Part shown: positions 33,398 to 49,106 of the stretch, one piece after another | Position numbering within the stretch: position 1 is the first letter of the stretch | Layout: each line of letters begins with the position of its first letter | Assembly: GCA_024276605.1 (NCBI GenBank) | Contig: JAJRWX010000009.1 | Location: 124,001 to 188,000 of the forward strand | DNA: 64,000 nucleotides | Direction: 5' to 3' | DNA from: Planctomycetota bacterium | Lineage (GTDB): Bacteria > Planctomycetota > Phycisphaerae > UBA1845 | The notes under the pieces: generated by a model | Seen by the model: only the letters and a program-made list of their open reading frames with translations | Database searches by the model: none | What the model was told of the DNA's origin: nothing | Made by a program: the position numbers and the translations under genes

Positions 33398-34540
33398 TCA
33401 TGCACGCAATCGGCCTAGTTTGGTACGCAGCAGTATGAGGAAAAGGGGAACACCGACAATAGCTGTAATAACGCCAATAGGCAGCGTCGCACTGCCAACA
33501 TCCCGGTCCGTGATCCAGCCGGCAAGTCGCATGGTCAACTGTGCACCCCAATCGCAAACAATAAGAAATCCACCGCCCAGCAGACCGGCTACCGGCAACA
33601 AGATGCGACAATCGCTGCCCACCAATAGCACAGCCATATGAGGAACAACCAATCCCACGAAGCCAATCGGCCCGCAATAACCCACAACACCCGCCGTGGC
33701 CAACGTACAAAGCACCACACTCACCCCCTGTAACACCACCACGTTGACACCACGGGTCTGAGCTAACTCTTCACCTAACCGATACTGGTTCATGGCGCGC
33801 GACATGACCATCAAACCTATCCATGCGGGCACCAACATCGGAAGCAGCGATAATTGTTCCAATGCAGATATAGGGTCTAAGGAACCCATCATCCATCGAA
33901 CGGTCGCAAACGTAACGCGCTCATCCGACACGGAAGTAATAAACATCATCATCGCAGAACAAAATAATCCCATAGTCACACCGGCCAGGAGTAACTCATT
34001 GGACGTCAGGCGGCGCGAACCACGCACGAATACAAATACTGCAACGACAATCAGCAATGCGCCGCCAAAAGCCGATATCGCAATCGAAGAAACCCCACAC
34101 ACCATAACCGTCCAGCCCAACCGTATAGCTAGCAATGCCCCCAGCGATCCGCCGTTCGCAATACCCAACGTATAAGGCGTGGCTAATGAATTGCGAAAGA
34201 GTATTTGAAAGGTCGCCCCGCACATCGCTAGGGTGATTCCAACTTGCAATGCTAGCAAAGTGCGCGGAAACCTAAGCCCAAAACCGATGTGCTTAGCCAG
34301 TGCGACAAAGCCGGCTAGCTCGTCCTCGGAAACCCGGCCATCACCATCCGTATCAACAAAAGGTCGATCTACCAGCGTCGTAGCATCGATCGGCAGACCC
34401 AACTGCGCCCGCCACGCATCCGACCAGCCAAACGAAGCAGACTCCGTTCCGATGCCCGGACTCACGATCACCAGCACAACAAGAAAAACAACACACAATG
34501 TGAGTCGAATGACAAATTTTCCACGGCTAAGTGATGTCAT
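33398..34540 (-). CDS. FecCD/BtuC-type ABC importer permease with EF-hand loop
   Basis: A 380-residue permease of the vitamin B12/iron-chelate importer family, with about ten membrane segments (LRFPRTLLALQVGITLAMCG, LFRNSLATPYTLGIANGGSL, GYCGPIGFVGLVVPHMAVLL, all family motifs). Between the first and second membrane segments, residues 63-74 form a perfect EF-hand calcium loop (DTDGDGRVSEDE; ligand positions D, D, D, S and E). The start is ATG 34540, which overlaps the stop of the ATPase gene in an ATGA arrangement. It is the last gene of the three-gene importer unit. Confidence 0.92.
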   Translation of the reverse strand: MTSLSRGKFVIRLTLCVVFLVVLVIVSPGIGTESASFGWSDAWRAQLGLPIDATTLVDRPFVDTDGDGRVSEDELAGFVALAKHIGFGLRFPRTLLALQVGITLAMCGATFQILFRNSLATPYTLGIANGGSLGALLAIRLGWTVMVCGVSSIAISAFGGALLIVVAVFVFVRGSRRLTSNELLLAGVTMGLFCSAMMMFITSVSDERVTFATVRWMMGSLDPISALEQLSLLPMLVPAWIGLMVMSRAMNQYRLGEELAQTRGVNVVVLQGVSVVLCTLATAGVVGYCGPIGFVGLVVPHMAVLLVGSDCRILLPVAGLLGGGFLIVCDWGAQLTMRLAGWITDRDVGSATLPIGVITAIVGVPLFLILLRTKLGRLRA

Positions 34541-35349
34541 GACGTCGTTCCAGCATGTCGAATCGTTGGCACCACCCAAGCGGCACTTCCATCTCCCGTC
34601 GAAGCCACAGCCAGCTCAACACCATACACTTGCGAAAGCACGTCAGGCGTCACCACGCGAAGGGGCGTATCACATGCCGCTACTTTCCCGTCATGAAGAA
34701 GGAGGATACGGTCGCAGTATCGTGCCGCAAGGTTGACGTCATGCGTAACCACGACGGCGGATAGCTGACCATCATCTACTTTTTGTCGTATCATATCGAA
34801 GATAGCTATCTGATGATTCAAATCCAAACCCGTCGTCGGTTCATCAAGCAGCAATACTGCCGGTGCCTGCGCAAACGCCGCAGCCAGATGCACGCGCTGA
34901 GCTTCTCCACCGGAAAGCGTGGAAAGTCGTCGCTGAGAAAACGAGGTGATTTTCGTAGATTGCATCGCAGAGGTTGCCACCAAGCGATCCTGTTTTGACT
35001 CGAACAGCCCCAGCGTTCGATGTGGGAATCGCCCCAACAACACCACATCTTCAACCAACATATCCACATCAACCGGTGGGTGTTGCGGCAAAAATGCAAT
35101 TAACTTGGCAAGCTGCAACCTGGGCACCTGAGATAACGGTACCTCTTGCCAAAGAACATCGCCGATACGTGGTTGAAGCAGGCCGGCTAATAAGCGCAGC
35201 ATCGTACTTTTGCCTGCACCGTTAGGCCCCACCAAGCCCCAGCACTGCCCCGCACAAACGTCCAGACTCACCGGCCCCAAAAACGTCGATTGAGAGGGAA
35301 AGCCAAACGAAACGTCGCGTGCCGATAATAAAGGCTGGTCACTTTTCAT
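34537..35349 (-). CDS. ABC importer ATPase (FecE/BtuD type)
   Basis: A 270-residue ATPase that powers the neighbouring permease. Walker A GPNGAGKST, signature LSGGEAQRV, Walker B AVLLLDEPT and the switch His in VVVTHDVN are present. It starts at ATG 35349, overlapping the end of the substrate-binding-protein gene by 11 bases, and its stop overlaps the permease start. The three genes are therefore one translationally coupled unit. Confidence 0.94.
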   Translation of the reverse strand: MKSDQPLLSARDVSFGFPSQSTFLGPVSLDVCAGQCWGLVGPNGAGKSTMLRLLAGLLQPRIGDVLWQEVPLSQVPRLQLAKLIAFLPQHPPVDVDMLVEDVVLLGRFPHRTLGLFESKQDRLVATSAMQSTKITSFSQRRLSTLSGGEAQRVHLAAAFAQAPAVLLLDEPTTGLDLNHQIAIFDMIRQKVDDGQLSAVVVTHDVNLAARYCDRILLLHDGKVAACDTPLRVVTPDVLSQVYGVELAVASTGDGSAAWVVPTIRHAGTTS

Positions 35350-36316
35350 CTGAAAATAGCCCTGGATGAAGCATACGTGCTAGTTTGTCTGCTATGAGTA
35401 CACACCTCGTCGAAGGGATTAGCGCATAATCGTCATCGACAAAATAAATCCGCTGCCCGCCAACAGCCGGCAACGTCTCAAACTTATGCCACTGCGACAA
35501 TAAGGCCCGACGGCGAGGCTCGTCCACATCGATCTCCGGTAACAGTTCAATAATCACCTCCGGACGACGCGACAGAATAGTCTCCATACTTACCTGTGGA
35601 TATGGCGCATCCACGTCACCGAAAATATTCTCACCACCGGCTAATTCGAGTAGTTGATTCAAAAAAGTCCCCCGACCAACCGTGAGAATATCTCGCAGTC
35701 GATCGGGCTGGCGCATCACGGTCAGTAAGACCCGAGGCCTAGCAACACCCGCCATGCGCTCGCGCACGAGGTTGAGGTCTTTTTGAAATTTTTCAATAAG
35801 CTGCGTCGCTTTCTCTTCTACATTAAGCTTCGCACCCAAATCACGCATACACTTTTCGATACCTTCCAGTGAATCAGTTTCATCGTAATACGTATCAATA
35901 TGCAACGTACGACACAATCTCTCCAGCGATTCATTCCGGCCACGCAACACAAGCAGGTCGGGACGTAACATGACGATACGTTCGAGGTCCGGATCCATCA
36001 GGCCGCCGACTTGTGGGCGTGAAGATAGCTCCGGCGGAAAAATACAAAACTTCCCTACGCCGACAATCCGATCACACGCACCCAGCAAACAAACAATCTC
36101 CGCAGCATTAGGTGCAATAGTCACAATGCGCCGTGGCCATGTGTGATGATCTCCATCTGCACTATGACGAACCTTAGGCGAGACTACATCCTGACTAGCC
36201 AGCGTGGGTGATTGAGCTTGAGCAGACGCTATCAAGAGAACTACGACTGATCGCAGTAGTACATACTGACATAACACGCGCAACTCGTTAAGAAGTGACA
36301 AAAATTTATAGAACAT
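35339..36316 (-). CDS. BtuF/FecB-type substrate-binding protein
   Basis: A 325-residue exported binding protein with an N-terminal hydrophobic segment ending near AQAQS. The helical-backbone metal receptor fold is recognisable: RIVTIAPNAAEIVCLLGACD and IVGVGKF in lobe one, the long linking helix around NVEEKATQLIEKFQKDLNLV, and RDILTVGRGTFLNQLLELAG in lobe two. It captures cobalamin, haem or a siderophore for the downstream permease/ATPase. No B12 riboswitch was seen upstream, so cobalamin cannot be preferred over iron chelates. Confidence 0.88.
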   Translation of the reverse strand: MFYKFLSLLNELRVLCQYVLLRSVVVLLIASAQAQSPTLASQDVVSPKVRHSADGDHHTWPRRIVTIAPNAAEIVCLLGACDRIVGVGKFCIFPPELSSRPQVGGLMDPDLERIVMLRPDLLVLRGRNESLERLCRTLHIDTYYDETDSLEGIEKCMRDLGAKLNVEEKATQLIEKFQKDLNLVRERMAGVARPRVLLTVMRQPDRLRDILTVGRGTFLNQLLELAGGENIFGDVDAPYPQVSMETILSRRPEVIIELLPEIDVDEPRRRALLSQWHKFETLPAVGGQRIYFVDDDYALIPSTRCVLIADKLARMLHPGLFSDEK

Positions 36317-36681: not shown

Positions 36682-38469
36682 CTACACCGAAACCGGCGGA
36701 CACTCAGGCACTAAACAAACGTCCTGAATACTTCGGCTACAAAGGGCACCAACCGCTATGGTCGCCTTTGGTCGAGATGGGTCTGAGGGAGACCAGCATA
36801 TCAAACGATCACGCAACTCCGTTGTCGCCACAATTACATCACCAGCTACATCCACACGCCGAAGCGTCTGACCACCTGCTTCATAGCGGCAGACAAAACT
36901 ATCACCCACCACCAGCGCATAGACAGCTAATGACGTATCAGTAAACACCAATCGATCGACACTATGCGCAGAAGTAAGCCAAAGCGACTCCGCCGGTCGC
37001 TGCATACCACGGTGGATCGTCTGCGGTTTATCAGTCACACCGACCGGCCAATGCAATATATCGCCCTCAGCATTTCCGGCGTACAACCCTCGGCCACTCG
37101 GACAAATCGCAGTGATCGTAGATGTACTACCGGTAAAAATCTCGCCCGGCTTGCCATCCACGGATCGGTTGGACCAGCTTACAATTTGTGCATCAACAGC
37201 GCAGTACATCATAGATGCCATACGAACGACACTACGCACGGCTTTAGCTTGGCTGGTTAAGGATGAAAAAAGTTCAACGGCATCCGCCGCATCTTGCCGC
37301 GACCATGACCAAATCCCCAGTTCCGAATGACTAGCGATGATACGATCGTCCGTACCGACAACAGCGTTGAAACCGCCACGTACCGCTGGAGCTTCAGGCA
37401 CCAGCCACGTCGCATCCGGCTCGATGGCATCCACCGGCAAACGATATACCCCCGTTGCGGCACCAAGCAGAAGTGAAACACCGGAGTTATTATCCATCAC
37501 TTGGATAGATCGGACCGCGCCGGCTTCACCGGCGATCGAAACGCGTCTTGGTGCAGTATCCGTCGCATGAGGATCAAAAAACAATATCTCCTGCCCGGCA
37601 GCTACCGCAATCCATCGCGTACGCGCTTCATGCGTTTGGGTGGCGAAAACCGCTTCATAAATATCACCACGCTGTTGTTGAGAAAATGCGCGAAGCAGTT
37701 CGGGCAACGCCGTATCCGGCGACTTCGCCGCGATGTGATGGATGCGAGACAACGTTTCTGCTAACTGTTCGATCCTTGCCTCTTGTGCATCACGTCGCGC
37801 TTCACCTAGCTTTCGGTTGATTTCCTGCTGCGCCTGCACCAGTGCACCGTGCTGACGCACCTGTTGCAGTTGACGATGCGACTGGGATTCCCACTTCACC
37901 TGCGGCTCACCCATCAATTGCAATCCCGCCAGAAAGCACGGTTGCTTAAGCGCATCTTGTATACCTTGTAACACCAACGCTGTACTACGCCCCTCCACTA
38001 GCGCAGCCGCTTCTTGACCGGCTGCCACATCAATCAGTGACTGCTTCATCGCCATCTGTACATGTCGAACGATGTTGTCTACCTTGATGACCCGATGACT
38101 GCCTAGCAGCGTCTTCTGAAAAGATTCCAACTCACTACGCTCGGGGATCACACCCACCTTGATGCTGACGGAAGCACGGCATTGGAAACCATCTTTTGAG
38201 GTTACTTCTTCGATAACACTCACGTCGAGCGGCGTCACGCGCACGAACATCAGGCTATCTATATCCGTAGCCTCGATCTGACCACCAGGCCCAACCAACA
38301 CAAGGTCTCCGGTTTCTCGCGTCAATAGCGCCGCCCAGGACGGTGGAAGATCAAACGAACGGCGTAAAAAACCAAAAACTTCTTCAGCGGCTACGCTAAG
38401 CGCAACATGATCTACCTGTTGCAGGAATTGTTGTGGGTCGAACTTGCCGGAGATCATCATAACTTCCAT
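36682..38469 (-). CDS. SPFH-like domain plus beta-propeller protein
   Basis: A roughly 595-residue protein of the ESCRT-like cluster. The N-terminal part (about 30-140) has the beta-strand pattern of an SPFH/band-7 domain (CRASVSIKVGVIPERSELES, then VIKVDNIVRHVQMAM), followed by a charged coiled coil (about 205-250, QEINRKLGEARRDAQEARIE). The C-terminal half (about 275-595) consists of WD40-like blades (STITAICPSGRGLYAGNAEG). There is no membrane helix or catalytic motif. SPFH proteins organise membrane patches and often neighbour PspA/flotillin systems. The frame reaches a TTG at 38505; ATG 38469 or 38460 are likelier starts. It lies 63 bases downstream of the Vps4-like ATPase gene and was probably transcribed with it. 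Assignment is by pattern and needs a fold search. Confidence 0.6.
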   Translation of the reverse strand: MEVMMISGKFDPQQFLQQVDHVALSVAAEEVFGFLRRSFDLPPSWAALLTRETGDLVLVGPGGQIEATDIDSLMFVRVTPLDVSVIEEVTSKDGFQCRASVSIKVGVIPERSELESFQKTLLGSHRVIKVDNIVRHVQMAMKQSLIDVAAGQEAAALVEGRSTALVLQGIQDALKQPCFLAGLQLMGEPQVKWESQSHRQLQQVRQHGALVQAQQEINRKLGEARRDAQEARIEQLAETLSRIHHIAAKSPDTALPELLRAFSQQQRGDIYEAVFATQTHEARTRWIAVAAGQEILFFDPHATDTAPRRVSIAGEAGAVRSIQVMDNNSGVSLLLGAATGVYRLPVDAIEPDATWLVPEAPAVRGGFNAVVGTDDRIIASHSELGIWSWSRQDAADAVELFSSLTSQAKAVRSVVRMASMMYCAVDAQIVSWSNRSVDGKPGEIFTGSTSTITAICPSGRGLYAGNAEGDILHWPVGVTDKPQTIHRGMQRPAESLWLTSAHSVDRLVFTDTSLAVYALVVGDSFVCRYEAGGQTLRRVDVAGDVIVATTELRDRLICWSPSDPSRPKATIAVGALCSRSIQDVCLVPECPPVSV

Positions 38470-38532
38470 CGAGACGTTACCATTGAGTACGCTTATCCTA
38501 TACAATGATAGTTGAGCAGACCGAAGAAATCC

Positions 38533-39651
38533 TTACTTTCCTTCCTGAGCAAACGTATCATAGCGCACGAGGTCCGACGAATGCACGGAAGGCTTCGTCT
38601 GATCGATCACCGCGCTTAGGTCCGCGAGGTTAATAGGACGCGGCTCTTTACCGCCGACAGCCTCCATGAACGGTCGTTGTGCCGCCTGTAGGGCGATGTT
38701 TTTAATGTCTGCACCACTATACCCCTCAAGCCGATCGCAAAGATCACCAAACTCAACATCGTCTGCCAACGGCCTATCACCGAGATAAATCTCAAGCAAC
38801 CGAAATCGCGCCGGCGCGTCAGGCAAGCCCACGTAAATTTTCGCATCCAAACGCCCAGGACGTAGCACCGCTTCATCCAGCATCCAGGGTTTATTGGTCG
38901 CACCAACAAAAAGTAGCGCGTGATCACCGCTACGATCGAATCCTTCCAACTCCTGCAGAATCTGCGGAACAACCCGCTGCATCACGGAAGACGAATCACT
39001 CTTTCGCTTAGGCACCAGCGCTTCAGCTTCATCCAAAAAAATGATCGATCTTGTCTGTGCTTTAGCGGCCTCAAATAGTTTACGAATATTCTGTTCCGCT
39101 TCACCAACCCATTTACTCAGCATCTGCGCCGCACTGACCACGTAAAACGAAGCGTCGATTTCATGGGCTATCGCCCTGGCAATCATTGTTTTTCCCGTAC
39201 CCGGCGGGCCGTAAAGCAACACACCGCCACCCGTGGCAATGCCATAACGTTTAGCTAATTCAGGATGACCAAAGGGGTAGATCATTTTCACACGGATTTC
39301 GTCTTTGACATCCTCCAACCCGGCTATGTCATCGAAACTGATGTCAGGCTTTTCACTCACCAACCAATCCGAAGCATCAGCGCCGGAGTCCTCCTCATTC
39401 TCCGATTGCTTTACCCGCCCCCTGCGCACCGCCCCCTGTTTCGCATCACAATCTTTAGCCAAGTCAATCAGCTCTGCCGCTAGCTCTTCATGTTGACGCT
39501 GCGTTTCAGGCGTCTTAGCCGACTCCGCCAGTTCAATCATACATTCGGCGGCATCAACCAAATATGTCTTAGCCGCTAGAAAATCACCACTTTTATACGA
39601 GGTAATTCCCTTGCGTTTGAGTCGATCAAATGTTGCAAATGAAACAGCCAT
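38533..39651 (-). CDS. Vps4-like AAA ATPase with N-terminal MIT-like domain
   Basis: A 372-residue ATPase. Residues 5-70 are a three-helix segment (FATFDRLKRKGITSYKSGDF, AAKTYLVDAAECMIELAE, HEELAAELIDLAKDC) with the spacing of a MIT domain. A linker (71-100) leads to one AAA module beginning KPDISFDDIAGLEDVKDEI: Walker A GPPGTGKT (148-155), pore loop SKWVGEAEQ (179-187, the aromatic W plus G/E pattern of the Vps4/katanin group), Walker B IIFLDE (203-208) and arginine-finger region GATNKPWMLDEAVLRPGRLD. Vps4 disassembles ESCRT-III polymers. Start ATG 39651 is used; the longer frame begins with TTG. It lies upstream of the SPFH gene and close to three ESCRT-III-like genes. Confidence 0.78.
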   Translation of the reverse strand: MAVSFATFDRLKRKGITSYKSGDFLAAKTYLVDAAECMIELAESAKTPETQRQHEELAAELIDLAKDCDAKQGAVRRGRVKQSENEEDSGADASDWLVSEKPDISFDDIAGLEDVKDEIRVKMIYPFGHPELAKRYGIATGGGVLLYGPPGTGKTMIARAIAHEIDASFYVVSAAQMLSKWVGEAEQNIRKLFEAAKAQTRSIIFLDEAEALVPKRKSDSSSVMQRVVPQILQELEGFDRSGDHALLFVGATNKPWMLDEAVLRPGRLDAKIYVGLPDAPARFRLLEIYLGDRPLADDVEFGDLCDRLEGYSGADIKNIALQAAQRPFMEAVGGKEPRPINLADLSAVIDQTKPSVHSSDLVRYDTFAQEGK

Positions 39652-39688
39652 AACCAATTTTTTCAATATTAACTAACAACCTAATGCT

Positions 39689-39709
39689 CCGTCACTACTG
39701 AGGTGACGG
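39689..39709. other. Hairpin upstream of the Vps4-like gene
   Basis: CCGTCAC and GTGACGG pair perfectly over a seven-base loop. There is no T-run on either side, so it may be a regulatory hairpin rather than an intrinsic terminator. Confidence 0.4.
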
Positions 39710-39829
39710 ATTAGACCAAACCGAGCCGCGCCCGTCAGAAAGCGGCTTACTCGCTACAAGGTAAATTCGATGGCAAGCTCCCGCTCGATCGCAGCGCTGA
39801 CCATGCATCAACTGATGCGTGATCGAAAT

Positions 39830-41341
39830 TTAGCGAGGCCTTCTTTGTCCTACTTTCGCCGGAGGAACCATAAAGACACAATCAGAAGCCGCGAAGCTAT
39901 CTCCGGAAAAAGTACTACCTGTAAGCACTAATTCAATGGTTCGCCTCGGCTGCAAGGCATCAATCATAAACGCTGCACGGGCCTCAACCAATGAAAAAGG
40001 AATCACTAAGTCCAACATGCCGTCCGTCATCGCGCGGTGACAAACACATGGTTGAAAACCCGAAAAACTAATCACATCATCCTCTATAAACCGCGGCCCG
40101 CGTGATCCAACAAACGGCGCCAGCGACTGACCCACACCATCCGCTCTGGTCAGCAACAGTGAAGACCTATCCACGTCTGCTGGTGAAAGATCAAATGTAC
40201 CCGTTAATGCCACACGAAAGAAACCGCGCTTAAAACGATGGAGGCGATTCGGACAACGACCCGGAAGAATATCGATTTCCACGGGCAGACCGACCGTAGG
40301 TAGGCAACCATTCACCTCATCACAAATATCGCCTGGAAAACAGGGATTAGGTCCATCCTGACAATCATTTACGACATCGCAAAATTCTTCCCCGTCGCAG
40401 AATAGACCGTTATCGCATATCGCATCGTCCGCTAGGTTCTGGCAATCATTGATGGGGTCGCAACTATCCAACGTACAGCCAACCGCATCATCGCACGCGG
40501 CGTCATCAGGTACATTCAGACAATCACTATCAACATCACAGGTATCCACAGTACATCCAACGCCATCATCACACACCGTATCATCGGGAACATACGTGCA
40601 ATCGTTTATCGCATCGCACACATCCGTCGTACAGTCAATCAGGTCATCACATCGCGCATCGTTGGCCACCGACTGACATCCATTGGTCACATCACAAACA
40701 TCATCCGTACACCCCACGCCGTCATCACACACCGTGTCATCCGGTGTCACGCTACATTCACCACTCGTCAAATCGCAAACGTCCACCGTGCAACTAATGC
40801 CGTCGTCGCAATCCGCATCTTGTGTGCATCCCGGCGGCGTTCCGATGGCATACACATGCACGTCGTAGTTGAATGTTTCGCTATGGCTTCCATTGAAACC
40901 GGCATCACTGCCACCGGTAATACCAATGCCAAAGATCGCACCAGTAGGCGTGGTCCCTAGACGTACCACAGAATCGGTTGTTAGGCCGCCCCCGCCGCAA
41001 TTAAGATCAATGGCGGAGTTGCCATCGTCGTTATTAGAACCGCTCGACCCACTGGAAGAAGATGCTAATAGACGACTGCTCCCGCTACCCGACGTAATAT
41101 CCACATCCACGATCACCTCATCGGTGTCGAAGGGGATCAATAGTTGGATCCAGTCCACATCTCCCGCCACCACCTCCCCGCTGGCCAGCCAAAAACATCC
41201 CTGGCCGGAATGAGTAGCTGCGGGGTCCGGTGAACCATTTGGAAACGTGTCAGAAAAGTCCGGTGGTTCGATCAGTACGGGTTGGGCCATAGCCACACTA
41301 GCGCCTACGACAACCCACGTTAAGCAATGCAGTAGCTTCAT
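39830..41341 (-). CDS. Exported cysteine-rich repeat protein
   Basis: A 503-residue exported protein with a signal peptide (MKLLHCLTWVVVGASVAMAQ). A beta-rich N-terminal domain with a Ser/Gly linker (about 85-100) precedes roughly seven cysteine-rich repeats of about 25 residues, each of the form CDDGxGCTxDxCD (about 175-340). This recalls the CTDC-type repeats found in slime-mould and some bacterial surface proteins. A C-terminal beta domain follows. Many disulfides or bound metal ions are likely. It lies within the ESCRT-like row on the same strand (45 bases after the ESCRT-III-like gene, 178 bases before the ATPase) but has no obvious mechanistic link. Function unknown. Confidence 0.75.
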   Translation of the reverse strand: MKLLHCLTWVVVGASVAMAQPVLIEPPDFSDTFPNGSPDPAATHSGQGCFWLASGEVVAGDVDWIQLLIPFDTDEVIVDVDITSGSGSSRLLASSSSGSSGSNNDDGNSAIDLNCGGGGLTTDSVVRLGTTPTGAIFGIGITGGSDAGFNGSHSETFNYDVHVYAIGTPPGCTQDADCDDGISCTVDVCDLTSGECSVTPDDTVCDDGVGCTDDVCDVTNGCQSVANDARCDDLIDCTTDVCDAINDCTYVPDDTVCDDGVGCTVDTCDVDSDCLNVPDDAACDDAVGCTLDSCDPINDCQNLADDAICDNGLFCDGEEFCDVVNDCQDGPNPCFPGDICDEVNGCLPTVGLPVEIDILPGRCPNRLHRFKRGFFRVALTGTFDLSPADVDRSSLLLTRADGVGQSLAPFVGSRGPRFIEDDVISFSGFQPCVCHRAMTDGMLDLVIPFSLVEARAAFMIDALQPRRTIELVLTGSTFSGDSFAASDCVFMVPPAKVGQRRPR

Positions 41342-41386
41342 AACATTTCCCCCTATCCGGTAGTGAATAGATGCCTACCTTAGCCG

Positions 41387-41998
41387 CTATTTTTGCTTCT
41401 CGCTGGACTCGTCCTTGAGCGCGTTAAGCTCCGCCCGAAGCCCGGCTAACTTGTCCAACTCCTTTTGATGCGCCGCCTCAGCTTCGGCATCGATCAATCG
41501 ATCCACATCTTCATTGCTGATGACCTCATCCGACGCACTCATCTCTGCATCCTGAGAGGCGATATCCTCAACACTATCCAGGAACATATTCATACGCTCT
41601 TCCATGGACTGCGACTGCACCATCGCTTTTTCCCAGTCCGTCTGCGTTTTGACCAGGTCCGTCTCGCCAAACAATTTGCCAATCTCCGCAGCCATCATGC
41701 CCATCGCCTGGGAGAAATCAGCCGAAGCCTCAGCTTGGCGCTTGATCACGAGCGCATTTTTCACCGTGAGTAATTGACGCTCTAGCATTTTCCGAATCGT
41801 CGCCGTCTTCTTTAGCGAATTGCGAATGAAATTGTACTGCTGCGTATCGCCGATTTTCCGCGCTTGCTGGGCGTTCTTGATGAACTCATCCTGAAACTTG
41901 CCCTGTTCGCGAATGGATTTCTCAATCCGCCGAATCCCCTGGCGAATCTTGATGTCGCGTTCGATACGTCTCTCTTGAGCTGATTTGAATAATCCCAT
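41387..41998 (-). CDS. ESCRT-III-like (Snf7/Vps2-type) coiled-coil protein with MIM1-like tail
   Basis: A 203-residue all-helical protein that starts MGLFKSAQERRIERDIKIRQ, as many eukaryotic CHMP proteins begin MGLF. Helices 1 and 2 (about 8-95) are strongly basic and form a long hairpin; the middle (FSQAMGMMAAEIGKLFG, then DWEKAMVQSQSMEERMNMFL) resembles the helix alpha3-alpha4 region of Snf7-family proteins; the last third is acidic (140-180). Residues 187-195 read LRAELNALK, close to the MIM1 consensus LxxRLxxLK that binds MIT domains of Vps4. Together with the MIT-like ATPase at 38533 this argues for an ESCRT-III role in membrane remodelling. PspA/Vipp1, the known bacterial members of this superfamily, lack such a tail. 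Family membership is inferred from pattern. Confidence 0.68.
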   Translation of the reverse strand: MGLFKSAQERRIERDIKIRQGIRRIEKSIREQGKFQDEFIKNAQQARKIGDTQQYNFIRNSLKKTATIRKMLERQLLTVKNALVIKRQAEASADFSQAMGMMAAEIGKLFGETDLVKTQTDWEKAMVQSQSMEERMNMFLDSVEDIASQDAEMSASDEVISNEDVDRLIDAEAEAAHQKELDKLAGLRAELNALKDESSEKQK

Positions 41999-42074
41999 CG
42001 ATTCATTCCAGACTGTTGTAGATCGAAAAGCTTATCGCACAACGCCACAAATACAGGATACGCTTTAGTAAAAC

Positions 42075-42320
42075 CTAATAATATTCCCGTTCGGGAATCA
42101 GCACCCACAGAAGTATGTAAATCAAGGTTCCGGGAAAGCCTGCTGAGAGAACAGACAGTAGCACGTAAATAATGCGTACCACAGTCGGGTCCAAATCGAA
42201 ATACTCACCAATCCCGCCACAGATACCCGCCATCCAACGGTCGTGAACACTTCGTCGCAATCGCCTTGAATAGCCGCTCAAAATAATCGGTTCCTCTCTG
42301 GGCCTATCGAGCCAAACCAT
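42075..42320 (-). CDS. PspC-domain membrane protein
   Basis: An 81-residue protein with the PspC signature RSVHDRWMAGICGGIGEYFD followed by LDPTVVRIIYVLLSVLSAGF and a second hydrophobic segment ending WVLIPEREYY. PspC proteins sense or stabilise the membrane in phage-shock systems, where PspA (an ESCRT-III superfamily member) is the effector. Start ATG 42320 lies seven bases beyond the stop of the upstream ESCRT-III-like gene; a longer frame to 42380 overlaps that gene and is less likely. It stands between two ESCRT-III-like genes. Confidence 0.85.
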   Translation of the reverse strand: MVWLDRPREEPIILSGYSRRLRRSVHDRWMAGICGGIGEYFDLDPTVVRIIYVLLSVLSAGFPGTLIYILLWVLIPEREYY

Positions 42321-42327
42321 GCCATAC

Positions 42328-42981
42328 TCACGCTTCCGGTGCCGCTTGGCGATCACGTACACTGCGATCCGCTTCTTCAAATGCTTCCGCGGTATCGGTG
42401 ATCGCGCCGGTATCCATCTTGTCCCACACGTTCATCACCGTCTGCCCTGCATTATTCAAACCCGCAGCCCCTTCATCAACTTCTGCGCCCAACGACAGAA
42501 TATCATCGAGACGCTCCTGATAGACCTCCGACTTGATCGAATCGGCTTCGATAAGCTTACCCAACCGAAGCAGATCACCCGGTGTAATCAGCCCCAACTT
42601 TCCAGTTTGCCCCATACGATCCGCATTTTCTCGCAGCATACGAAGCCGGGAAACGGTCATCATCTCTTTACTGCGGATGTTGAGTTGTCGCGCGAGCATG
42701 AGTTGCTCAGAAGTCCTCAATTCAAATTCCTGGGCTAACATACGTCGCACTTCCGGCGTCTTTTCCTGCGCGCCTCTATCGAAAATCTCCTGCTTTTCCT
42801 TAGCTAACTTCGTCACTTTAGCTAGCAATCTGCCGCGATCCTTTTCCAACAGTAACTCCTGACGACGAAGTTCCGAACGTGTCATTTGCGACAACGTTTT
42901 CTTGCGCTTCGTTAGCCAATCAAACAACGATTGCGGTACGCTGTTTTTACCGGAAAAAAGTTTGGCGAAAATACCGCTCAT
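42328..42981 (-). CDS. ESCRT-III-like coiled-coil protein, second paralogue
   Basis: A 217-residue helical protein. It starts MSGIFAKLFSGKNSVPQSLF (ATG 42981, AGGGA six bases upstream; the longer frame to 43092 overlaps the upstream gene). A basic helix pair follows (SELRRQELLLEKDRGRLLAK, then RRMLAQEFELRTSEQLMLAR), then RSKEMMTVSRLRMLRENADR and the segment LLRLGKLIEADSIKSEVYQE, a hairpin plus short helices like ESCRT-III cores. The C-terminus is acidic with no MIM1-like motif. It follows the winged-helix/ESCRT-III gene by 25 bases and precedes PspC. Alternatives are PspA/Vipp1 relatives or an unrelated coiled coil. Confidence 0.6.
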   Translation of the reverse strand: MSGIFAKLFSGKNSVPQSLFDWLTKRKKTLSQMTRSELRRQELLLEKDRGRLLAKVTKLAKEKQEIFDRGAQEKTPEVRRMLAQEFELRTSEQLMLARQLNIRSKEMMTVSRLRMLRENADRMGQTGKLGLITPGDLLRLGKLIEADSIKSEVYQERLDDILSLGAEVDEGAAGLNNAGQTVMNVWDKMDTGAITDTAEAFEEADRSVRDRQAAPEA

Positions 42982-43006
42982 CGTTTCCCTATCAACTCTA
43001 ATCGTA

Positions 43007-44470
43007 TTACGAAGGTTCAGGATCAACTTTACGCGCATCGGGAGAGTCCGGCGCATCAGGCTCCGAATCGGTCGTGATCGGTGGCGAGTCACTCGCCACC
43101 CGTGTAGAAGACTGCGGTGGCGTAATCACTGAAGGCGGAATCGCAATCGTCTCTGATCCCGTATCATCTTTCTCGAATTCTTTGAGAATAGCCATCTCCT
43201 CTTCACTTATCAGCGTTTGCTCAATACCAGCCTCCAAGCCACCCACCATATCAGCATCCGCTTTGAGCGATTCCAACATCTCCTCAGCTTCGACCGCATG
43301 AGAGGTCAACTCCTCCGTATCAGGAAGCTGGGCTAACTCGCCTTGCTTAATCAACGTCAGATTATGGATGTCCGTGCTGATAATGTTGATCTGCTGGTTA
43401 AGCATGGCGCCCGTCGTGTTATGTCGAGCGATGTCTTTACGAAGCTGTGCCACCTGGGCAGCAATGCGGCGACGAGGCACCTCCGACTTGGCGTTCTTGC
43501 CCTCTTCGATAAGTTCGGCTTCCTTCTTTTCCAGCTTGGCAATGTCATCATAAAAACGATCACGCCGCTGGGAAAGTGTGGCCCGCCGCTCAGCCAGAAG
43601 ATTAATCTTCTCCGTTTCATCACCCTCGCCGGAAAAGAGCTGTTTAATTTTGTCCATCATATTCATTGATTTCTTCTCCGCACGCTCTCCAGAAGCCCCG
43701 CGATACATCAGGAGTTGACCGTCCCGATCAACCAGTCTCAACTCCGCATCACTGCTTGCCAGTTGGCGAAAGCTCTTTCGTACAAGATGTTCCGGCAAGT
43801 TGGCCTCTTTGGCAACGGCTGACGCGGCAAGGCTCCCCGTCAACAGGTCGGCACTGTAGGATGCAATCAAGGCACGTGCCCGATCGACCTTATCGCTTTC
43901 CTTTTCCGGATCGAATAGTTTCACAAGCCGCTCGTCCACGGCATCACCTGCGGCATGAACACGCCACCCCCCCTGTCCGTCAGGCTCGATCAATACCACC
44001 GAAACTTTCGGTATATTAAACTTAGCCTCGCGCGCCTGTGGGGTAAAACCTGTCGTACTGCAAACGCCGATCACATGGGACATGGTGACATCACCCATGA
44101 GCTTATTCACATGGTCGTGCAGTTCACCCAAACCAATCGCTGGGCCGGCTTCTTCCGGTGTACGTACCAGCGCAGCCAGTGGCGACATCACAGACGCAAT
44201 CGCCACACCCGTCCGGCGGCGTCCGAAGAAAAATCGCTTTTCGTAACCATGCAGCGCCAAGCGTCGATTCGCCGGTAGGGTCTTGAGGCGTTGACGATCA
44301 TAGGTTCGATTCTCTGCCAGTAGCGCCCGCAACCGATCTTCATCATCGAGCCGAGCCGTCTGCCAGATCGAGCCACGCAACAGCCCACCCTCCGCAGCGT
44401 GGAGATTATACTCCACACCCGCAAGAAAATCAGCCTCCAGTTGCATCGCTTGTTCAGCATTCGCGCTCAT
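43007..44470 (-). CDS. Winged-helix/ESCRT-III-like fusion protein
   Basis: A 487-residue protein in three parts. Residues 1-205 are a mixed alpha/beta domain I do not recognise (HDHVNKLMGDVTMSHVIGVC, then NIPKVSVVLIEPDGQGGW). Residues about 210-265 look like a winged helix (LAASAVAKEANLPEHLVRKS, then ELRLVDRDGQLLMYRG). From about 270 to 440 a basic coiled hairpin follows (INLLAERRATLSQRRDRFYD, then VPRRRIAAQVAQLRKDIARH) with an acidic alpha-helical tail (EEMLESLKADADMVGGLEAG), the plan of an ESCRT-III core. A Pro-rich tail ends the protein. The combination of winged helix and ESCRT-III core is known from eukaryotic CHMP7 and archaeal CdvB. AGGTGA lies upstream of ATG 44470. Confidence 0.55.
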   Translation of the reverse strand: MSANAEQAMQLEADFLAGVEYNLHAAEGGLLRGSIWQTARLDDEDRLRALLAENRTYDRQRLKTLPANRRLALHGYEKRFFFGRRRTGVAIASVMSPLAALVRTPEEAGPAIGLGELHDHVNKLMGDVTMSHVIGVCSTTGFTPQAREAKFNIPKVSVVLIEPDGQGGWRVHAAGDAVDERLVKLFDPEKESDKVDRARALIASYSADLLTGSLAASAVAKEANLPEHLVRKSFRQLASSDAELRLVDRDGQLLMYRGASGERAEKKSMNMMDKIKQLFSGEGDETEKINLLAERRATLSQRRDRFYDDIAKLEKKEAELIEEGKNAKSEVPRRRIAAQVAQLRKDIARHNTTGAMLNQQINIISTDIHNLTLIKQGELAQLPDTEELTSHAVEAEEMLESLKADADMVGGLEAGIEQTLISEEEMAILKEFEKDDTGSETIAIPPSVITPPQSSTRVASDSPPITTDSEPDAPDSPDARKVDPEPS

Positions 44471-44508
44471 CAGACGATTTCACCTAAAAACCTGGTCATA
44501 ACATCAAT

Positions 44509-44766
44509 CTACATTAACCGTGCGCCGCATTGGCTACAAAAACGTGCCGGGCGATTTTCAACTTTTCGACATCCTTCACGCGGACAGATAAGCCCGGCTG
44601 ATGCCCCATGGCCTATCGGCGTTCGCCGGCCCGATCCTCCCAACATGCGACCCAGGCCGCTGAAAACAAAGCCTACTACGCGAGCTAAGATATACAAAAT
44701 ACTAAAAAAGAACGCCGCCAATCCAAGGATAAGCACGACAATAAAAATAAAGGGCTCGCCGGGCAT
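44509..44766 (-). CDS. Membrane protein with C-terminal zinc ribbon
   Basis: An 85-residue protein: a hydrophobic segment (FIFIVVLILGLAAFFFSILY) is followed by a glycine-rich amphipathic stretch and then a zinc ribbon (CPREGCRKVENRPARFCSQC, with two CxxC-like pairs). Start ATG 44766 has GAGGA nine bases upstream; the frame extends to a TTG at 44781. It lies between the kinase gene and the winged-helix/ESCRT-III gene on the same strand. It could be a membrane adaptor for the kinase, which has related zinc ribbons. Confidence 0.7.
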   Translation of the reverse strand: MPGEPFIFIVVLILGLAAFFFSILYILARVVGFVFSGLGRMLGGSGRRTPIGHGASAGLICPREGCRKVENRPARFCSQCGARLM

Positions 44767-44781
44767 AATGCCAGTCCTCAA

Positions 44782-45852
44782 TCACTCTATCAGCACGCTC
44801 AGATCAACACCGCAGTGAATGCAGAATCGATCGTTTACCCGCACAATCTGCCGACACGCATGGCATTGCGGCACCGCTGCGGCTAACTGTTGCCCGCAAT
44901 GAATGCAAAATTGGTCATCAGTCTTGACGACTCGACTACAATGCGGACACCTCGGTTTCGCGCCGGATGATACACCGACCGGTAACGGAGGTGGCACTGG
45001 AGGGGGAGTAGGACGAGGGACAACCTCATCTACCACAGGCCGATCCGTAATCGCAGCCAGCATATCCGTCGCACTAACAAACCGGGCATCGCGCCGCGCA
45101 TAACAACGACTAAACACATCATCCAAATGCGCAGGGACTTCCGGACGCAGCGTACTGGGTTTCTCACCACCAACCGGTCGCACACCAGTAAGCATTTCAA
45201 ACAGGACAATACCACAACTGTAAAGATCGCTGCGGGCATCGACCTCGCGACCTTCCTTTTGTTCCGGCGACATATACGCCAGCGTCCCGGCTACGTTGGC
45301 CCCATCGCCGGCATGCAAACTACCGCTTTGCATCATGGATTGCGTCGTCACCCCACAGACCTGACCTAATCCAAAGTCCGTCACTTTGACGGATGACTCA
45401 CTTATAGCAGCCAGTGACTCAATGGCGACATTCAACAAAATATTCGCCGGTTTAATATCACGATGAACCAACCCGTCGCCATGAGCAGCGGTCAGCCCTT
45501 GCAAGACGCCTTGCATAATGGCCATTGCCGAGGAAATAGGAAAATCTTTTTTGTAGTGATCAATGACCTGACGCAGTGACGGGCCGTTAACATACTCCAT
45601 AATGAAATACGGAGGATCCCCGTAGGGATCCAGATCAATTGCCCTGACAATGTTTGGATGCTTCAATCCATGAATCGCGACGCCTTCACGTTGTAGATTG
45701 CGCACATACTGCGGATCAGTCGGCACCTTAATGGCCACTACATCACCGAACATATGATGACGTCCGCGCCACACTTCGCCGAAACTTCCCCTGCCTACGC
45801 ACGCCTCCAGCAGGTAGTTTTGAATGCGATCACCTTGATTTAACATGGACAT
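44782..45852 (-). CDS. Ser/Thr protein kinase with two C-terminal zinc ribbons
   Basis: A 356-residue Hanks-type kinase. Conserved elements: glycine loop GRGSFGEVWRG, the ATP-binding Lys in VVAIKVP, catalytic loop HRDIKPANILL, DFGLGQ, and the GTLAYMSPEQKEG activation segment. After the kinase domain a Pro-rich linker leads to two zinc ribbons (CPHCSRVVKTDDQFCIHCGQ and CHACRQIVRVNDRFCIHCGV). There is no membrane helix. The frame goes to ATG 45876, but ATG 45852 has AGAGAGG eight bases upstream. It is the second gene of the ESCRT-like row, and phosphorylation of its downstream proteins is a reasonable inference. Confidence 0.9.
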   Translation of the reverse strand: MSMLNQGDRIQNYLLEACVGRGSFGEVWRGRHHMFGDVVAIKVPTDPQYVRNLQREGVAIHGLKHPNIVRAIDLDPYGDPPYFIMEYVNGPSLRQVIDHYKKDFPISSAMAIMQGVLQGLTAAHGDGLVHRDIKPANILLNVAIESLAAISESSVKVTDFGLGQVCGVTTQSMMQSGSLHAGDGANVAGTLAYMSPEQKEGREVDARSDLYSCGIVLFEMLTGVRPVGGEKPSTLRPEVPAHLDDVFSRCYARRDARFVSATDMLAAITDRPVVDEVVPRPTPPPVPPPLPVGVSSGAKPRCPHCSRVVKTDDQFCIHCGQQLAAAVPQCHACRQIVRVNDRFCIHCGVDLSVLIE

Positions 45853-45882
45853 CAGCGCCGCCTCTCTCGCGCACATGCAATG

Positions 45883-46290
45883 TTACACACCATTTTCAGC
45901 CCGCTCCGCCAGATACTCGCAGACCTTTAGATTGTAGACTGCTGCCGATAGTATACCAAGCAACAATACCGCCCACGACAACGATCCTAAACCTGCCATA
46001 GACCCAATCAACCACCAGGCCACCAAGAAATCGGCCATCGAATAACCACCCAGCATTACCCCCACCGCAGCATTGGAGTCCTGCGCAACCGCCCATCGCG
46101 TCACAAAAAAGGTTGCCCAGGGAAGTGCCAGCACGCAACCCATCCACACCAGCACATACTTGATAGTTAACCAAATCGTCTCCAGATGTTCCGGATGTTT
46201 CCAAAACCAGATAACCGCCCCGGCGCCGGCCACGACGAATATCGCGGTCACCATTTTGCTACCTATAAATTGTCCAGCGGCAACAAGCAT
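45883..46290 (-). CDS. Multi-span membrane protein of unknown function
   Basis: A 135-residue hydrophobic protein with three to four membrane segments (MVTAIFVVAGAGAVIWFW, YVLVWMGCVLALPWATFFVT, FLVAWWLIGSMAGLGSLSWA). AGGAG lies eight bases before the ATG at 46290. I do not recognise a family. It is the first gene of the row that continues through the kinase and the ESCRT-III-like genes, with 30 bases to the kinase start, so it probably belongs to the same system. Confidence 0.65.
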   Translation of the reverse strand: MLVAAGQFIGSKMVTAIFVVAGAGAVIWFWKHPEHLETIWLTIKYVLVWMGCVLALPWATFFVTRWAVAQDSNAAVGVMLGGYSMADFLVAWWLIGSMAGLGSLSWAVLLLGILSAAVYNLKVCEYLAERAENGV

Positions 46291-46460: not shown

Positions 46461-47864
46461 TCACGTCGAAAGGGGATCAGGCAGGTGATCCGGCGTACAA
46501 ACGCGTTGTTTACCATCAGCCTTAGCCTGGTACAACGCCCGGTCAGCTTCATCAATCAGTATTTCAGGTACCGCCGGTTTGAGCGTTTCGACGTCGGATA
46601 TGCCCGCACTCATACCGATGGACACCTCTGGAATCTCAGCTTCGACACGGGCACAGAAGGCACTAATTATCCGCCGCGCAAGTGTCGCAGCCCGGTAAGC
46701 GGAAGTCTGTGGAAGAAGAATCACAAACTCGTCTCCGCCCGGCCTGGCTGGTAAGTCGGACGATCGCAATTGACTCTTAATAGTCTCCGCAGCTAGCACA
46801 AGCACCTGATCACCCACACGATGCCCTTGAAGATCGTTTACATCCTTGAAATCATCCAGATCGATCATGATACACGCCAGGTTGCGATCATAACGCTGCG
46901 CTTCCTCAAATGCTTGTCGTAAGGCTTCACCCAGATGGCGACGGTTGTACAATCCGGTTAAGGGATCACGGGAGGCCAGATCGCGCAACTGCTCGGTCCT
47001 TTCTAGCACACGTTGTTCCAGTTCTGCATTCAATCGAAGCACACCTTCGTGCGCATGTTGATGCTGATCAGCCATACGATTAAAAGCCCGAGCTAATTGG
47101 CCAATCTCATCCCGACGCCCCTCCGGACTGCGCACATGAAGTTCGCCTTGCGAGAATTGCAGCATCGTGGTGGCCAGTGTCTGTAACGGCCAGGCTATCC
47201 GGCGAACCAATAAAAATCCTAGAGGAATTGAAAAAACCAAGGCGATAATCCCCACACCGGTCAGCACATCCATACTACTAGCCAACGTTAGACGATAGGT
47301 ATTGGGTGGAATAGCCGTACGCACATACCCAATCAATGTTTTCGTGCCAGTGCCAAATTCGTTAGAATCAAGGCTTGTATTGATTGGATAAACGACTTCA
47401 CGAAAGACAAGATGATCATTCTTTTGCTGCCATAATATGGGCCTGCCTAGCGCCATGTCCTCAATGTGCCGCGCCTTGATAACTGTAGCATGATCGGCAG
47501 CCATGCCATGGAAAGCCGAACCCAACACACGGCCTTGTGTATCATGAAAAACCACATACACAAGTGGCGATCCATCAGCAGCCCGCTGCGCCAACGCCTG
47601 CACGTCCTTGGTTGACGCTATCAATGGTGCAGCCGCATCCGCCAATAAAGAAGATAAACCAATCAGAGATTCATCCTGTTGTTGACGCAACGCTACAGCA
47701 CTAGCGCGTACCAAAAACGACGAAGAAGCACCGACAACCGTGATGCACAAAAACACCACCAGTGTTGTTGATTTCACCTGAAGACTTGTTACAACATCAC
47801 CCACGCGCCGAACCCAAGACACATGATTAATCGTGTCGTAGGATGTCTCTTGCTGATTAGACAT
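46461..47864 (-). CDS. Membrane diguanylate cyclase (GGDEF) with HAMP domain
   Basis: A 467-residue protein: cytoplasmic N-terminus, first membrane helix (about 35-55), a periplasmic sensor region (about 60-190), second membrane helix (about 200-220), a HAMP-like linker (QTLATTMLQFSQGELHVRSP, RRDEIGQLARAFNRMADQHQ), a short coiled coil, and a catalytic GGDEF domain (RDPLTGLYNRRHLGEALRQA, then PGGDEFVILLP). The allosteric inhibitory site RSSD is intact five residues before the GGDEF motif. It makes cyclic di-GMP, whose possible receptor in the window is the PilZ protein at 26382. It stands alone, with no co-transcribed neighbour clear. Confidence 0.94.
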   Translation of the reverse strand: MSNQQETSYDTINHVSWVRRVGDVVTSLQVKSTTLVVFLCITVVGASSSFLVRASAVALRQQQDESLIGLSSLLADAAAPLIASTKDVQALAQRAADGSPLVYVVFHDTQGRVLGSAFHGMAADHATVIKARHIEDMALGRPILWQQKNDHLVFREVVYPINTSLDSNEFGTGTKTLIGYVRTAIPPNTYRLTLASSMDVLTGVGIIALVFSIPLGFLLVRRIAWPLQTLATTMLQFSQGELHVRSPEGRRDEIGQLARAFNRMADQHQHAHEGVLRLNAELEQRVLERTEQLRDLASRDPLTGLYNRRHLGEALRQAFEEAQRYDRNLACIMIDLDDFKDVNDLQGHRVGDQVLVLAAETIKSQLRSSDLPARPGGDEFVILLPQTSAYRAATLARRIISAFCARVEAEIPEVSIGMSAGISDVETLKPAVPEILIDEADRALYQAKADGKQRVCTPDHLPDPLST

Positions 47865-48107: not shown

Positions 48108-49106
48108 CTAGGCTGGCTGGTGGTCGGCTTGCTGCCGGGCGCGGTCTCGAAGCGTATCGAGCGCTTCGCGGACCTCATTGGCCATGCGGGCATTGGGAAA
48201 ATCTTTTACGAGATTTAACCCGATGTTTAGCGCATCCTGCCAACGTTTTTCAGTAACCGCAAAACGGAATTGTACGCCAAGTTGTAGTAATTTTTCCTTG
48301 AATACATCTCGTGCCGAGGCCTGTAATTCCTGGGCCTCACTTGAAGATAGATAGGAATCCAGCTCGCGGAGAACTTCTATGGCGTGGTCCGTGTCACTGC
48401 GTCGCACCGCCTCATCCCATTCATGCCGAAGCTCATCTTTTCGCTTATCCTTCAAAGAAACGAGTCGATCCTGCAATACCTGAGTTTTGGTATTTCCAGG
48501 TAGCGCTGCAGCCATCCGGTCTATCTCAATAGTAGCTTGATCCCAATCGTGAGCATGAAATAGTTTTTCAATGCGCTCAACCATTTGATCCAGCTTCAAT
48601 TCGACGGCTGTTGCCCGGGCCTCATCCAACTCCTCACGAAGTGCTTCCGCCTCATGGCGATAACCGAAACGCTTCTCCATCTCATCTACCAGATTGAGCG
48701 CAGCTTCCCATTTGCGCGCCCGAATCTCAGCCCGAATCGCACCACTAAGGGCATCTAATTCCTGATCCCTATGCGCAAGCCCCTTAGCTGCGTCCGAAAT
48801 TCGTGTGTTCTCCGCGATGGAATCGAGGATCTTATTCTGTTTGCCAAGGCCTTCTTCAAGCGACTGAAGTTGGTGTAGGTGCCGTGTGAGAGTGGCTTCG
48901 ATCTTGAGCAACAGTGGCATAAGCGTAGCCAAAGTCAACACTACCAATAGCATGGCCACGCCAACCACGAATAGCCAAGTCGATGAGGACGTATCAAACC
49001 CAATGACCCCGGCCCCGATGGCGCAGGCTGAGCCAATCAAAGCCACAATGCACACCACATTATGAAGCCATCGTAGTTGAGAAAATCGTTCTGGGGGTAA
49101 TGACAT
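48108..49106 (-). CDS. Membrane-anchored coiled-coil/TPR-like protein
   Basis: A 332-residue protein with two N-terminal membrane segments (about 15-35 and 43-63), a coiled-coil region (EATLTRHLHQLQSLEEGLGK), and a helical repeat part rich in Trp/Ala/Glu (KWEAALNLVDEMEKRFG, DWDQATIEIDRMAA, RWQDALNIGLNLVKDFP) that resembles TPR-like repeats. No enzymatic motif is visible. I recall this architecture from planctomycetes, but no function is known. It ends before a low-complexity stretch at 48060-48107. Confidence 0.75.
   Translation of the reverse strand: MSLPPERFSQLRWLHNVVCIVALIGSACAIGAGVIGFDTSSSTWLFVVGVAMLLVVLTLATLMPLLLKIEATLTRHLHQLQSLEEGLGKQNKILDSIAENTRISDAAKGLAHRDQELDALSGAIRAEIRARKWEAALNLVDEMEKRFGYRHEAEALREELDEARATAVELKLDQMVERIEKLFHAHDWDQATIEIDRMAAALPGNTKTQVLQDRLVSLKDKRKDELRHEWDEAVRRSDTDHAIEVLRELDSYLSSSEAQELQASARDVFKEKLLQLGVQFRFAVTEKRWQDALNIGLNLVKDFPNARMANEVREALDTLRDRARQQADHQPA

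What the first reader, a model, noticed from the sequence alone, without database searches (positions are those of the whole stretch)
36682..46290. A bacterial ESCRT-III/Vps4-like gene cluster
On one strand lie genes for three helical proteins with ESCRT-III character (41387, 42328, 43007), a Vps4-like AAA ATPase with an N-terminal MIT-like helical bundle (38533), an SPFH-like/propeller protein (36682), PspC (42075), a Ser/Thr kinase (44782) and two membrane proteins (44509, 45883). The known bacterial ESCRT-III superfamily members PspA and Vipp1 do not normally travel with a Vps4-type ATPase carrying an MIT domain. Several ESCRT-III-like paralogues, a dedicated ATPase and membrane partners together suggest a complete remodelling machine. 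The genes, motifs and order are seen directly; family membership of the coiled-coil proteins is my inference.
Basis: partly seen in the sequence, partly recalled or inferred. Interest (0 to 1): 0.95.

Follow-up and report, generated by a model that had tools for sequence, protein, structure and literature searches.

The report
A bacterial ESCRT-III/Vps4-like gene cluster
A block of neighbouring genes kept together across many planctomycete bacteria encodes a relative of the ESCRT-III membrane-cutting filament proteins next to a Vps4-like motor ATPase, and together they would likely form an ATP-driven membrane-remodelling machine of a type that the reviews we read place only in archaea and eukaryotes.

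Summary
The cluster is real: ten genes on the minus strand, 36682-46290, in a Phycisphaerae-type planctomycete genome. Core order is kept: D-E-G collinear in 38 of 40 related loci read, D-E-G-ATPase in 29 of 40.

G (41387) is ESCRT-III-like by independent tests. A Snf7 search of 149 planctomycete genomes rang in 11; 10 of the 11 places are G orthologues. G's profile hits only Snf7 in the PDB (best E 0.004). Foldseek's first 13 hits for its model are ESCRT-III superfamily, none at E<=1e-3.

The ATPase has a Vps4_C tail, archaeal CdvC as best NCBIfam match (below cut-off) and a MIT-like N-terminus; its AAA tree position is unresolved. D is predicted to be a winged helix plus an ESCRT-III-like module (weaker); E is unproven. 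In other planctomycete families the cluster carries a second MIT-like ATPase.

[quoted passage not shown] one survey notes bacterial Vps4-like ATPases with Snf7 displaced. Our searches found no report of this cluster. Its function is untested.

The parts
45883..46290 (-). A: 135-aa hydrophobic protein (several TM stretches by eye)
   Evidence: in 34 of 40 loci; no Pfam
44782..45876 (-). B: Ser/Thr protein kinase with C-terminal double zinc ribbon
   Evidence: Pfam Pkinase E 1.5e-39, DZR E 1.8e-9; in 36 of 40 loci
44509..44781 (-). C: 90-aa protein, hydrophobic N-terminus plus Cys pairs at the C-terminus (zinc-ribbon-like by eye)
   Evidence: sequence; in 19 of 40 loci
43007..44470 (-). D: alpha/beta domain (1-185), winged helix (about 191-257), then ESCRT-III-like helical module: short helix 271-280, hairpin 285-326/330-375, helices 385-416 and 423-433 (all predicted)
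   Evidence: AlphaFold2 model, mean pLDDT 84.2; Foldseek CdvB2 prob 0.94-0.99 and winged helices up to prob 1.00 among other hits; encoded as two separate genes in other families
42328..42981 (-). E: 217-aa helical protein, candidate further ESCRT-III-like subunit (unproven)
   Evidence: in 39 of 40 loci; hhalign 76.7% (E 2.1e-5) to the gene at the same position in other families; no PDB hit
42075..42380 (-). F: PspC-domain membrane protein (likely start about 42320)
   Evidence: Pfam PspC E 1e-23; in 23 of 40 loci
41387..41998 (-). G: ESCRT-III (Snf7)-like subunit with a MIM1-like C-terminal segment
39830..41341 (-). H: Cys-rich repeat protein with a signal-like N-terminus (by eye); sporadic, probably not part of the machine
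   Evidence: Dicty_CTDC E 0.029, below cut-off; in 3 of 40 loci
38533..39651 (-). I: Vps4-like AAA ATPase: MIT-like N-terminus (about residues 1-75), one AAA domain, Vps4_C tail
   Evidence: Pfam AAA and Vps4_C (26.4 bits, cut-off 21.3); Vps4_C reported for 24 of 24 orthologues at E<=10, best 3.2e-7; best NCBIfam CdvC 234 bits, below its cut-off; collinear with archaeal CdvC
36682..38505 (-). J: N-terminal domain of unknown fold, then a C-terminal beta-propeller-like half (likely start about 38457)
   Evidence: profile hits to designed propellers E 6e-18 and natural WD proteins E 9e-6; in 29 of 40 loci

Best explanation
The cluster encodes an ESCRT-III-like protein (G) beside a Vps4-like AAA ATPase, and its products likely form a membrane-remodelling machine in which G, probably co-assembled with D and E, would polymerise on the inner membrane and the ATPase would pull subunits out of the polymer. 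Shown here: gene content, conserved order, the Snf7 relationship of the G family, the Vps4_C tail and CdvC resemblance of the ATPase. Predicted: D's winged helix plus ESCRT-III-like module; the MIT-like N-terminus of the ATPase. Inferred: E is a further subunit; the MIT-like domain docks on the MIM1-like C-terminus of G, the hexamer threads the subunit and so shortens or rearranges the filament, driving constriction or scission; the small hydrophobic proteins and PspC tether the polymer; the Ser/Thr kinase times it; the propeller protein J is a scaffold or cargo adaptor. FtsZ and PspA were not found in the host genome, so division, abscission and membrane repair are all open as the task served.
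Confidence: 0.7

Rival explanations
1. A membrane-associated quality-control system: the coiled-coil proteins act as scaffolds or substrates and the ATPase is a Cdc48/TPR-AAA-type unfoldase whose helical N-terminus only resembles MIT. No ESCRT-like filament is involved.
For: AAA domain groups with bacterial TPR-AAA ATPases; TPR-type hits to the pooled N-terminus; RPGR as in Cdc48-type proteins (Cdc48 signature recalled); D, E and E's counterpart lack sequence hits to ESCRT-III.
Against: Specific Snf7 hits of the G family; Vps4_C tail; CdvC as best NCBIfam model, narrowly (234 against 226 bits for CDC48); tight linkage of G with the ATPase.
Confidence: 0.2
2. A use of the machine, not exclusive with the best explanation: a lineage-specific phage-shock (PSP)-like response in which G is mainly a membrane-stabilising coat signalling through PspC, a Toastrack gene nearby and the kinase, and the ATPase only recycles it. 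Envelope stress, not scission, is the task.
For: PspC in the operon; Toastrack/DUF4097 gene at 32382-33233; no PspA in the window's genome at E<=1, and 52 of 60 relatives, window included, have none over the cut-off.
Against: PspC is in 23 of 40 loci only. G and PspA are not exclusive: in the phylum 12 of 29 G-bearing genomes have PspA against 29 of 120 without G (Fisher p 0.07); in relatives 5 of 50 against 3 of 10 (p 0.12). A dedicated ATPase, two in other families, goes beyond the PSP coats known to me.
Confidence: 0.3
3. A use of the machine, not exclusive with the best explanation: a division or abscission engine that stands in for FtsZ, as Cdv does in Sulfolobales.
For: FtsZ over cut-off in 0 of 60 relatives and 0 of 149 phylum genomes, controls 13 of 14; PMC6952346 (passages) says Phycisphaerae divide by a binary-fission-like mechanism without FtsZ and asks which protein drives it; G is in 50 of 60 relatives at 61-94% identity to the window's.
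Against: FtsZ is missing throughout the phylum sample, yet G is in only 29 of 149 genomes, and 8 of 8 sampled genomes of the same class outside the order lack G: most FtsZ-less planctomycetes do without it. Ten of 60 relatives lack a G hit, some of them near-complete (G039, G045, G049, G052). Weak FtsZ matches remain: 2 of 60 and 7 of 149.
Confidence: 0.25

Closest known systems
Archaeal Cdv / ESCRT-III-Vps4 system (CdvB paralogues + CdvC)
   Same: Helical ESCRT-III-like subunit(s) beside an ATPase with an N-terminal helical bundle, one AAA domain and a Vps4_C tail; a winged helix in the system; host without FtsZ.
   Different: Bacterial; no CdvA recognised (not searched for); extra kinase, propeller protein and PspC; the window ATPase has RPGR and does not fall with CdvC in the best tree.
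Archaeal ESCRT loci with Ser/Thr kinase, winged-helix or SPFH partners (PMC10936438, passages)
   Same: ESCRT-III + Vps4 + Ser/Thr kinase + winged helix in one locus.
   Different: That paper confines systems with vps4 and ESCRT-III to archaea and eukaryotes; an SPFH identity of J is not supported here.
Bacterial PspA/Vipp1 (PSP) systems
   Same: ESCRT-III superfamily helical scaffold; PspC as neighbour.
   Different: G is not found by the PspA model; further candidate subunits and a Vps4-like ATPase.
Bacterial Vps4-like AAA ATPases with a TPR/6TM partner, and TM-bearing Snf7 homologues with an AAA ATPase (PMC11237479, passages)
   Same: A Vps4-like ATPase in bacteria; the AAA domain of the window ATPase is sister to planctomycete TPR-AAA proteins. 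Snf7-AAA association in some bacteria was already noted there.
   Different: In the Vps4-like cases snf7 is said to be displaced by an unrelated gene; here an Snf7-like gene stands beside the ATPase, with a winged-helix protein, kinase and propeller protein. Planctomycetes are not named in the main text.

Membership tests
ESCRT-III (Snf7): protein G | Sequence match to the Snf7 model | tested here: met
   For the orthologue family: 10 of the 11 ringing places in 149 genomes, one over cut-off; 30 of 120 listed distant homologues annotated PF03357. Window protein alone: no hit.
ESCRT-III (Snf7): protein G | alpha1-alpha2 hairpin followed by alpha3/alpha4 and alpha5 | tested here: met
   In a prediction only: helices 7-49/52-109/115-153/162-201; Foldseek ranks 1-13; moderate confidence, no E<=1e-3.
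ESCRT-III (Snf7): protein G | C-terminal MIT-interacting motif | tested here: inconclusive
   26 of 40 near, 4 of 27 distant orthologues; motif definition recalled.
ESCRT-III (Snf7): protein G | Polymerisation on membranes | not testable with these tools
   Needs purified protein.
ESCRT-III superfamily: protein D, C-terminal module | ESCRT-III fold and sequence | tested here: inconclusive
   Layout fits, CdvB2 prob up to 0.99, but VIA and the profile search are not specific; Pfam Snf7 in 4 of 27 members, best E 0.1.
ESCRT-III superfamily: protein E | ESCRT-III fold or sequence | tested here: inconclusive
Vps4/CdvC ATPase: protein I | Single AAA domain with Vps4_C tail | tested here: met
   Above cut-off in the window protein; reported in 24 of 24 orthologues at E<=10; collinear with CdvC.
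Vps4/CdvC ATPase: protein I | N-terminal MIT domain | tested here: inconclusive
   Vps4B MIT hits in PDB profile searches; no Pfam MIT in the lists shown; hhalign to CdvC MIT 24.5%.
Vps4/CdvC ATPase: protein I | AAA domain in one clade with archaeal and eukaryotic Vps4 | tested here: inconclusive
   Best tree puts it with bacterial TPR-AAA (99/95); AU p 0.273 for a clade with Vps4.
PspA/Vipp1 (PF04012): protein G | Match to the PspA_IM30 model | tested here: not met
   No match anywhere in the window's genome at E<=1; controls ring in 12 of 14.
SPFH/Band-7: protein J | Band-7 domain | tested here: inconclusive
   No Band_7 among Pfam hits of J or four homologues; the 60 PDB rows shown of 80 are nearly all propellers.

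The most novel reading that the evidence does not exclude
Planctomycetes own a complete bacterial ESCRT machine: several ESCRT-III paralogues, one of CHMP7/CdvB-like winged-helix make-up, worked by one or two MIT-type Vps4 ATPases under kinase control. In the FtsZ-less, binary-fission Phycisphaerae-type lineages it is the constriction or abscission engine, so ESCRT-driven division exists in all three domains, and the ESCRT-III/Vps4 pairing is not an archaeal invention.
Probability: 0.25. Interest if true: 0.97.

Novelty: new variant of a known kind. Interest (0 to 1): 0.85.

Why it matters
[quoted passage not shown] A conserved Snf7-like/Vps4-like pair across planctomycete families would move that boundary, bear on where ESCRT came from (ancestral or transferred), and give a testable candidate for membrane scission, repair or division in bacteria without FtsZ.

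Tried and rejected
PspA identity of G: rejected. G as a replacement of PspA: no exclusion pattern. Common ancestry of G, D and E by hhalign: not detected; only E with its same-position counterpart is fairly clear. PDB profile searches with the D module, E's counterpart and E: no ESCRT-III among the hits. SPFH in J: no support. Sister-type ATPase in the window's order: none in 60 genomes at E<=1e-60 (that search had no positive control). A first quick ATPase tree lost 17 rows to a motif filter (15 of them not outgroup) and had one kind of outgroup; replaced. Guess that the G-bearing family without window-type ATPase is anammox: dropped, GC 61-64% (anammox GC recalled). The Cys-rich gene 39830-41341 as a component: rejected (3 of 40). 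Counts of the two ATPase types for the 27 distant loci are contaminated, because the iterated model merged both; one search is used instead. Prior art: searches, 118 of the open-access library (listings; passages of six papers read; no supplements); no bioRxiv and few subscription papers are held, so a report elsewhere is possible.
Full report
What is there. Ten genes lie head to tail on the minus strand between 36682 and 46290: A (hydrophobic), B (Ser/Thr kinase with zinc ribbons), C (hydrophobic, Cys pairs), D (487 aa), E (217 aa), F (PspC), G (203 aa), H (Cys-rich), I (AAA ATPase) and J (607 aa as listed). Gaps are small. The window sits in a genome of 4.5 Mb in 110 contigs, 96% complete.

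The cluster is conserved. G orthologues lie in 50 of 60 genomes, own included. I read 40 neighbourhoods of the 49 other positive genomes: D-E-G in order in 38, D-E-G-ATPase in 29 of 40, several of the rest being cut by contig ends. The sporadic gene is H (3 of 40). In a draw of 149 genomes of the phylum, G is in 29, own included. I read the locus in 27 of the 28 others (the one left out is a contig-edge fragment). There D is split into two genes, the winged-helix part and the helical part (each in 23 of 27), with an E counterpart (23 of 27), a second ATPase with a MIT-like N-terminus (readable from its start in 19 of 27), G, and in 10 of 27 the window-type ATPase on the same contig. In several longer contigs the propeller protein, A and a kinase follow.

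G is ESCRT-III-like. The window protein alone finds nothing, but the family does. The Snf7 model run over six frames of 149 whole genomes rings in 11, and 10 of those 11 places are G orthologues, which a mere coiled-coil bias would not be expected to give; one is over the curated cut-off. Snf7 is the commonest family among G members (13 of 30 at E<=10, best E 0.0011), and 30 of the 120 distant homologues listed carry a precomputed Snf7 domain, against 0 of the 120 nearest. The G profile against PDB sequences returns three hits at E<=10, all Snf7 (E 0.004 to 0.021), over the alpha1-alpha2 hairpin. The predicted model (pLDDT 71.7, pTM 0.50) has the ESCRT-III order of helices, and Foldseek's ranks 1 to 13 are CHMP, Loki ESCRT-III, CdvB and Vipp1 structures, though no E-value reaches 1e-3 and unrelated helical proteins score as high in VIA.

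D and E. D's model (pLDDT 84.2) shows an alpha/beta domain, a winged helix, then a short helix, a long hairpin and two further helices. Foldseek lists CdvB2, CdvB and Asgard ESCRT-IIIB at probabilities 0.94 to 0.99 and winged helices up to 1.00, but its first hit is MukBEF; VIA puts CT398 and bMERB first, and the sequence profile finds coiled coils and other unrelated chains. So D is a probable, not a proven, ESCRT-III-like subunit of a winged-helix-fused kind. E is only a candidate: it matches its positional counterpart and nothing solved.

The ATPase. It has AAA and Vps4_C above the curated cut-offs, Vps4_C reported in 24 of 24 orthologues at E<=10, and archaeal CdvC as best NCBIfam model, narrowly ahead of CDC48 and far below the equivalog cut-off (for a distant orthologue, L231, CDC48 comes first). 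It aligns end to end with CdvC. Its N-terminal 75 residues and those of the sister ATPase look homologous (94.9%). The sister-family profile hits Vps4B MIT first (E 0.0014), with ribosomal bS20 at E 0.006 as the nearest unrelated row. With both families pooled, designed TPRs score highest but over one hairpin, while Vps4B MIT is matched over most of the domain at E 6e-4. Pfam's MIT model is in none of the lists shown (several lists stop at 25 rows), and hhalign to archaeal CdvC MIT is weak (24.5% and 8.7%). In the AAA tree the sister ATPase joins archaeal and yeast Vps4 (92/91, below the tool's mark, long branches), while the window-type ATPase joins bacterial TPR-AAA proteins (99/95); a clade of window-type with Vps4 is not rejected (p 0.273), nor is one of both ATPase types with Vps4 (p 0.506). 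I therefore call it Vps4-like.

Mechanism, most likely. G, with D and probably E, polymerises on the cytoplasmic face of the inner membrane; the ATPase docks by its MIT-like domain on a MIM1-like tail (26 of 40 near, 4 of 27 distant) and pulls subunits through its pore, so that the polymer changes shape and bends or cuts the membrane. A, C and PspC would anchor it and the kinase would regulate it. All of this beyond gene content and family resemblance is inference.

Function in the cell. FtsZ is not found over cut-off in 60 relatives or 149 phylum genomes (weak matches in 2 and 7; controls 13 of 14), in line with PMC6952346 (passages), which asks what drives binary-fission-like division in Phycisphaerae. 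That makes division attractive, but most FtsZ-less planctomycetes sampled lack G (120 of 149), including 8 of 8 sampled genomes of the same class outside the order. PspA is not found in the window's genome, but G and PspA are not exclusive in the phylum.

Known or new. PMC10936438 (passages) confines systems with vps4 and ESCRT-III to archaea and eukaryotes and describes archaeal loci with Ser/Thr kinases, winged helices or SPFH proteins, a striking parallel. PMC7615534 (passages) says bacteria lack a clear Vps4 homologue. PMC11237479 (passages) reports Vps4-like ATPases in some bacteria with snf7 displaced, and TM-bearing Snf7 homologues with an AAA ATPase in some bacterial operons; planctomycetes are not named in its main text, and its supplements were not seen. 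I found no description of this cluster in the searches listed under Tried and rejected.

Noticed in passing
32382-33233 (-): Toastrack/DUF4097 gene (Pfam E 1.5e-10), a PSP partner domain, about 3.4 kb beyond J.
   Followed up: partly
33398-36316 (-): Three genes resembling a BtuC/BtuD/BtuF-type ABC importer (named by eye) follow the cluster and are kept after J in several loci of the window's family.
   Followed up: no
39830-41341 (-): Secreted-looking Cys-rich repeat protein inserted between G and the ATPase, found in 3 of 40 related loci.
   Followed up: partly
46461-47864 and 48108-49106 (-): A GGDEF-like protein (by eye) and a coiled-coil membrane protein upstream are often kept in the same order in loci of the window's family.
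   Followed up: no
L242:10302-11126: In one planctomycete family lacking the window-type ATPase, a kinase-like ORF (WaaP-like by eye) lies between the second ATPase and G.
   Followed up: no
L131-L139: Single-AAA proteins with a TPR-like N-terminus (by eye), fetched from nine planctomycete genomes, are the sister group of the window ATPase in the AAA tree; they may be the bacterial Vps4-like family of PMC11237479.
   Followed up: partly
L225:13427-14278: The homologue of A in another planctomycete family carries an extra domain weakly like the peptidoglycan-synthase activator LpoB (E 0.031, below cut-off).
   Followed up: no
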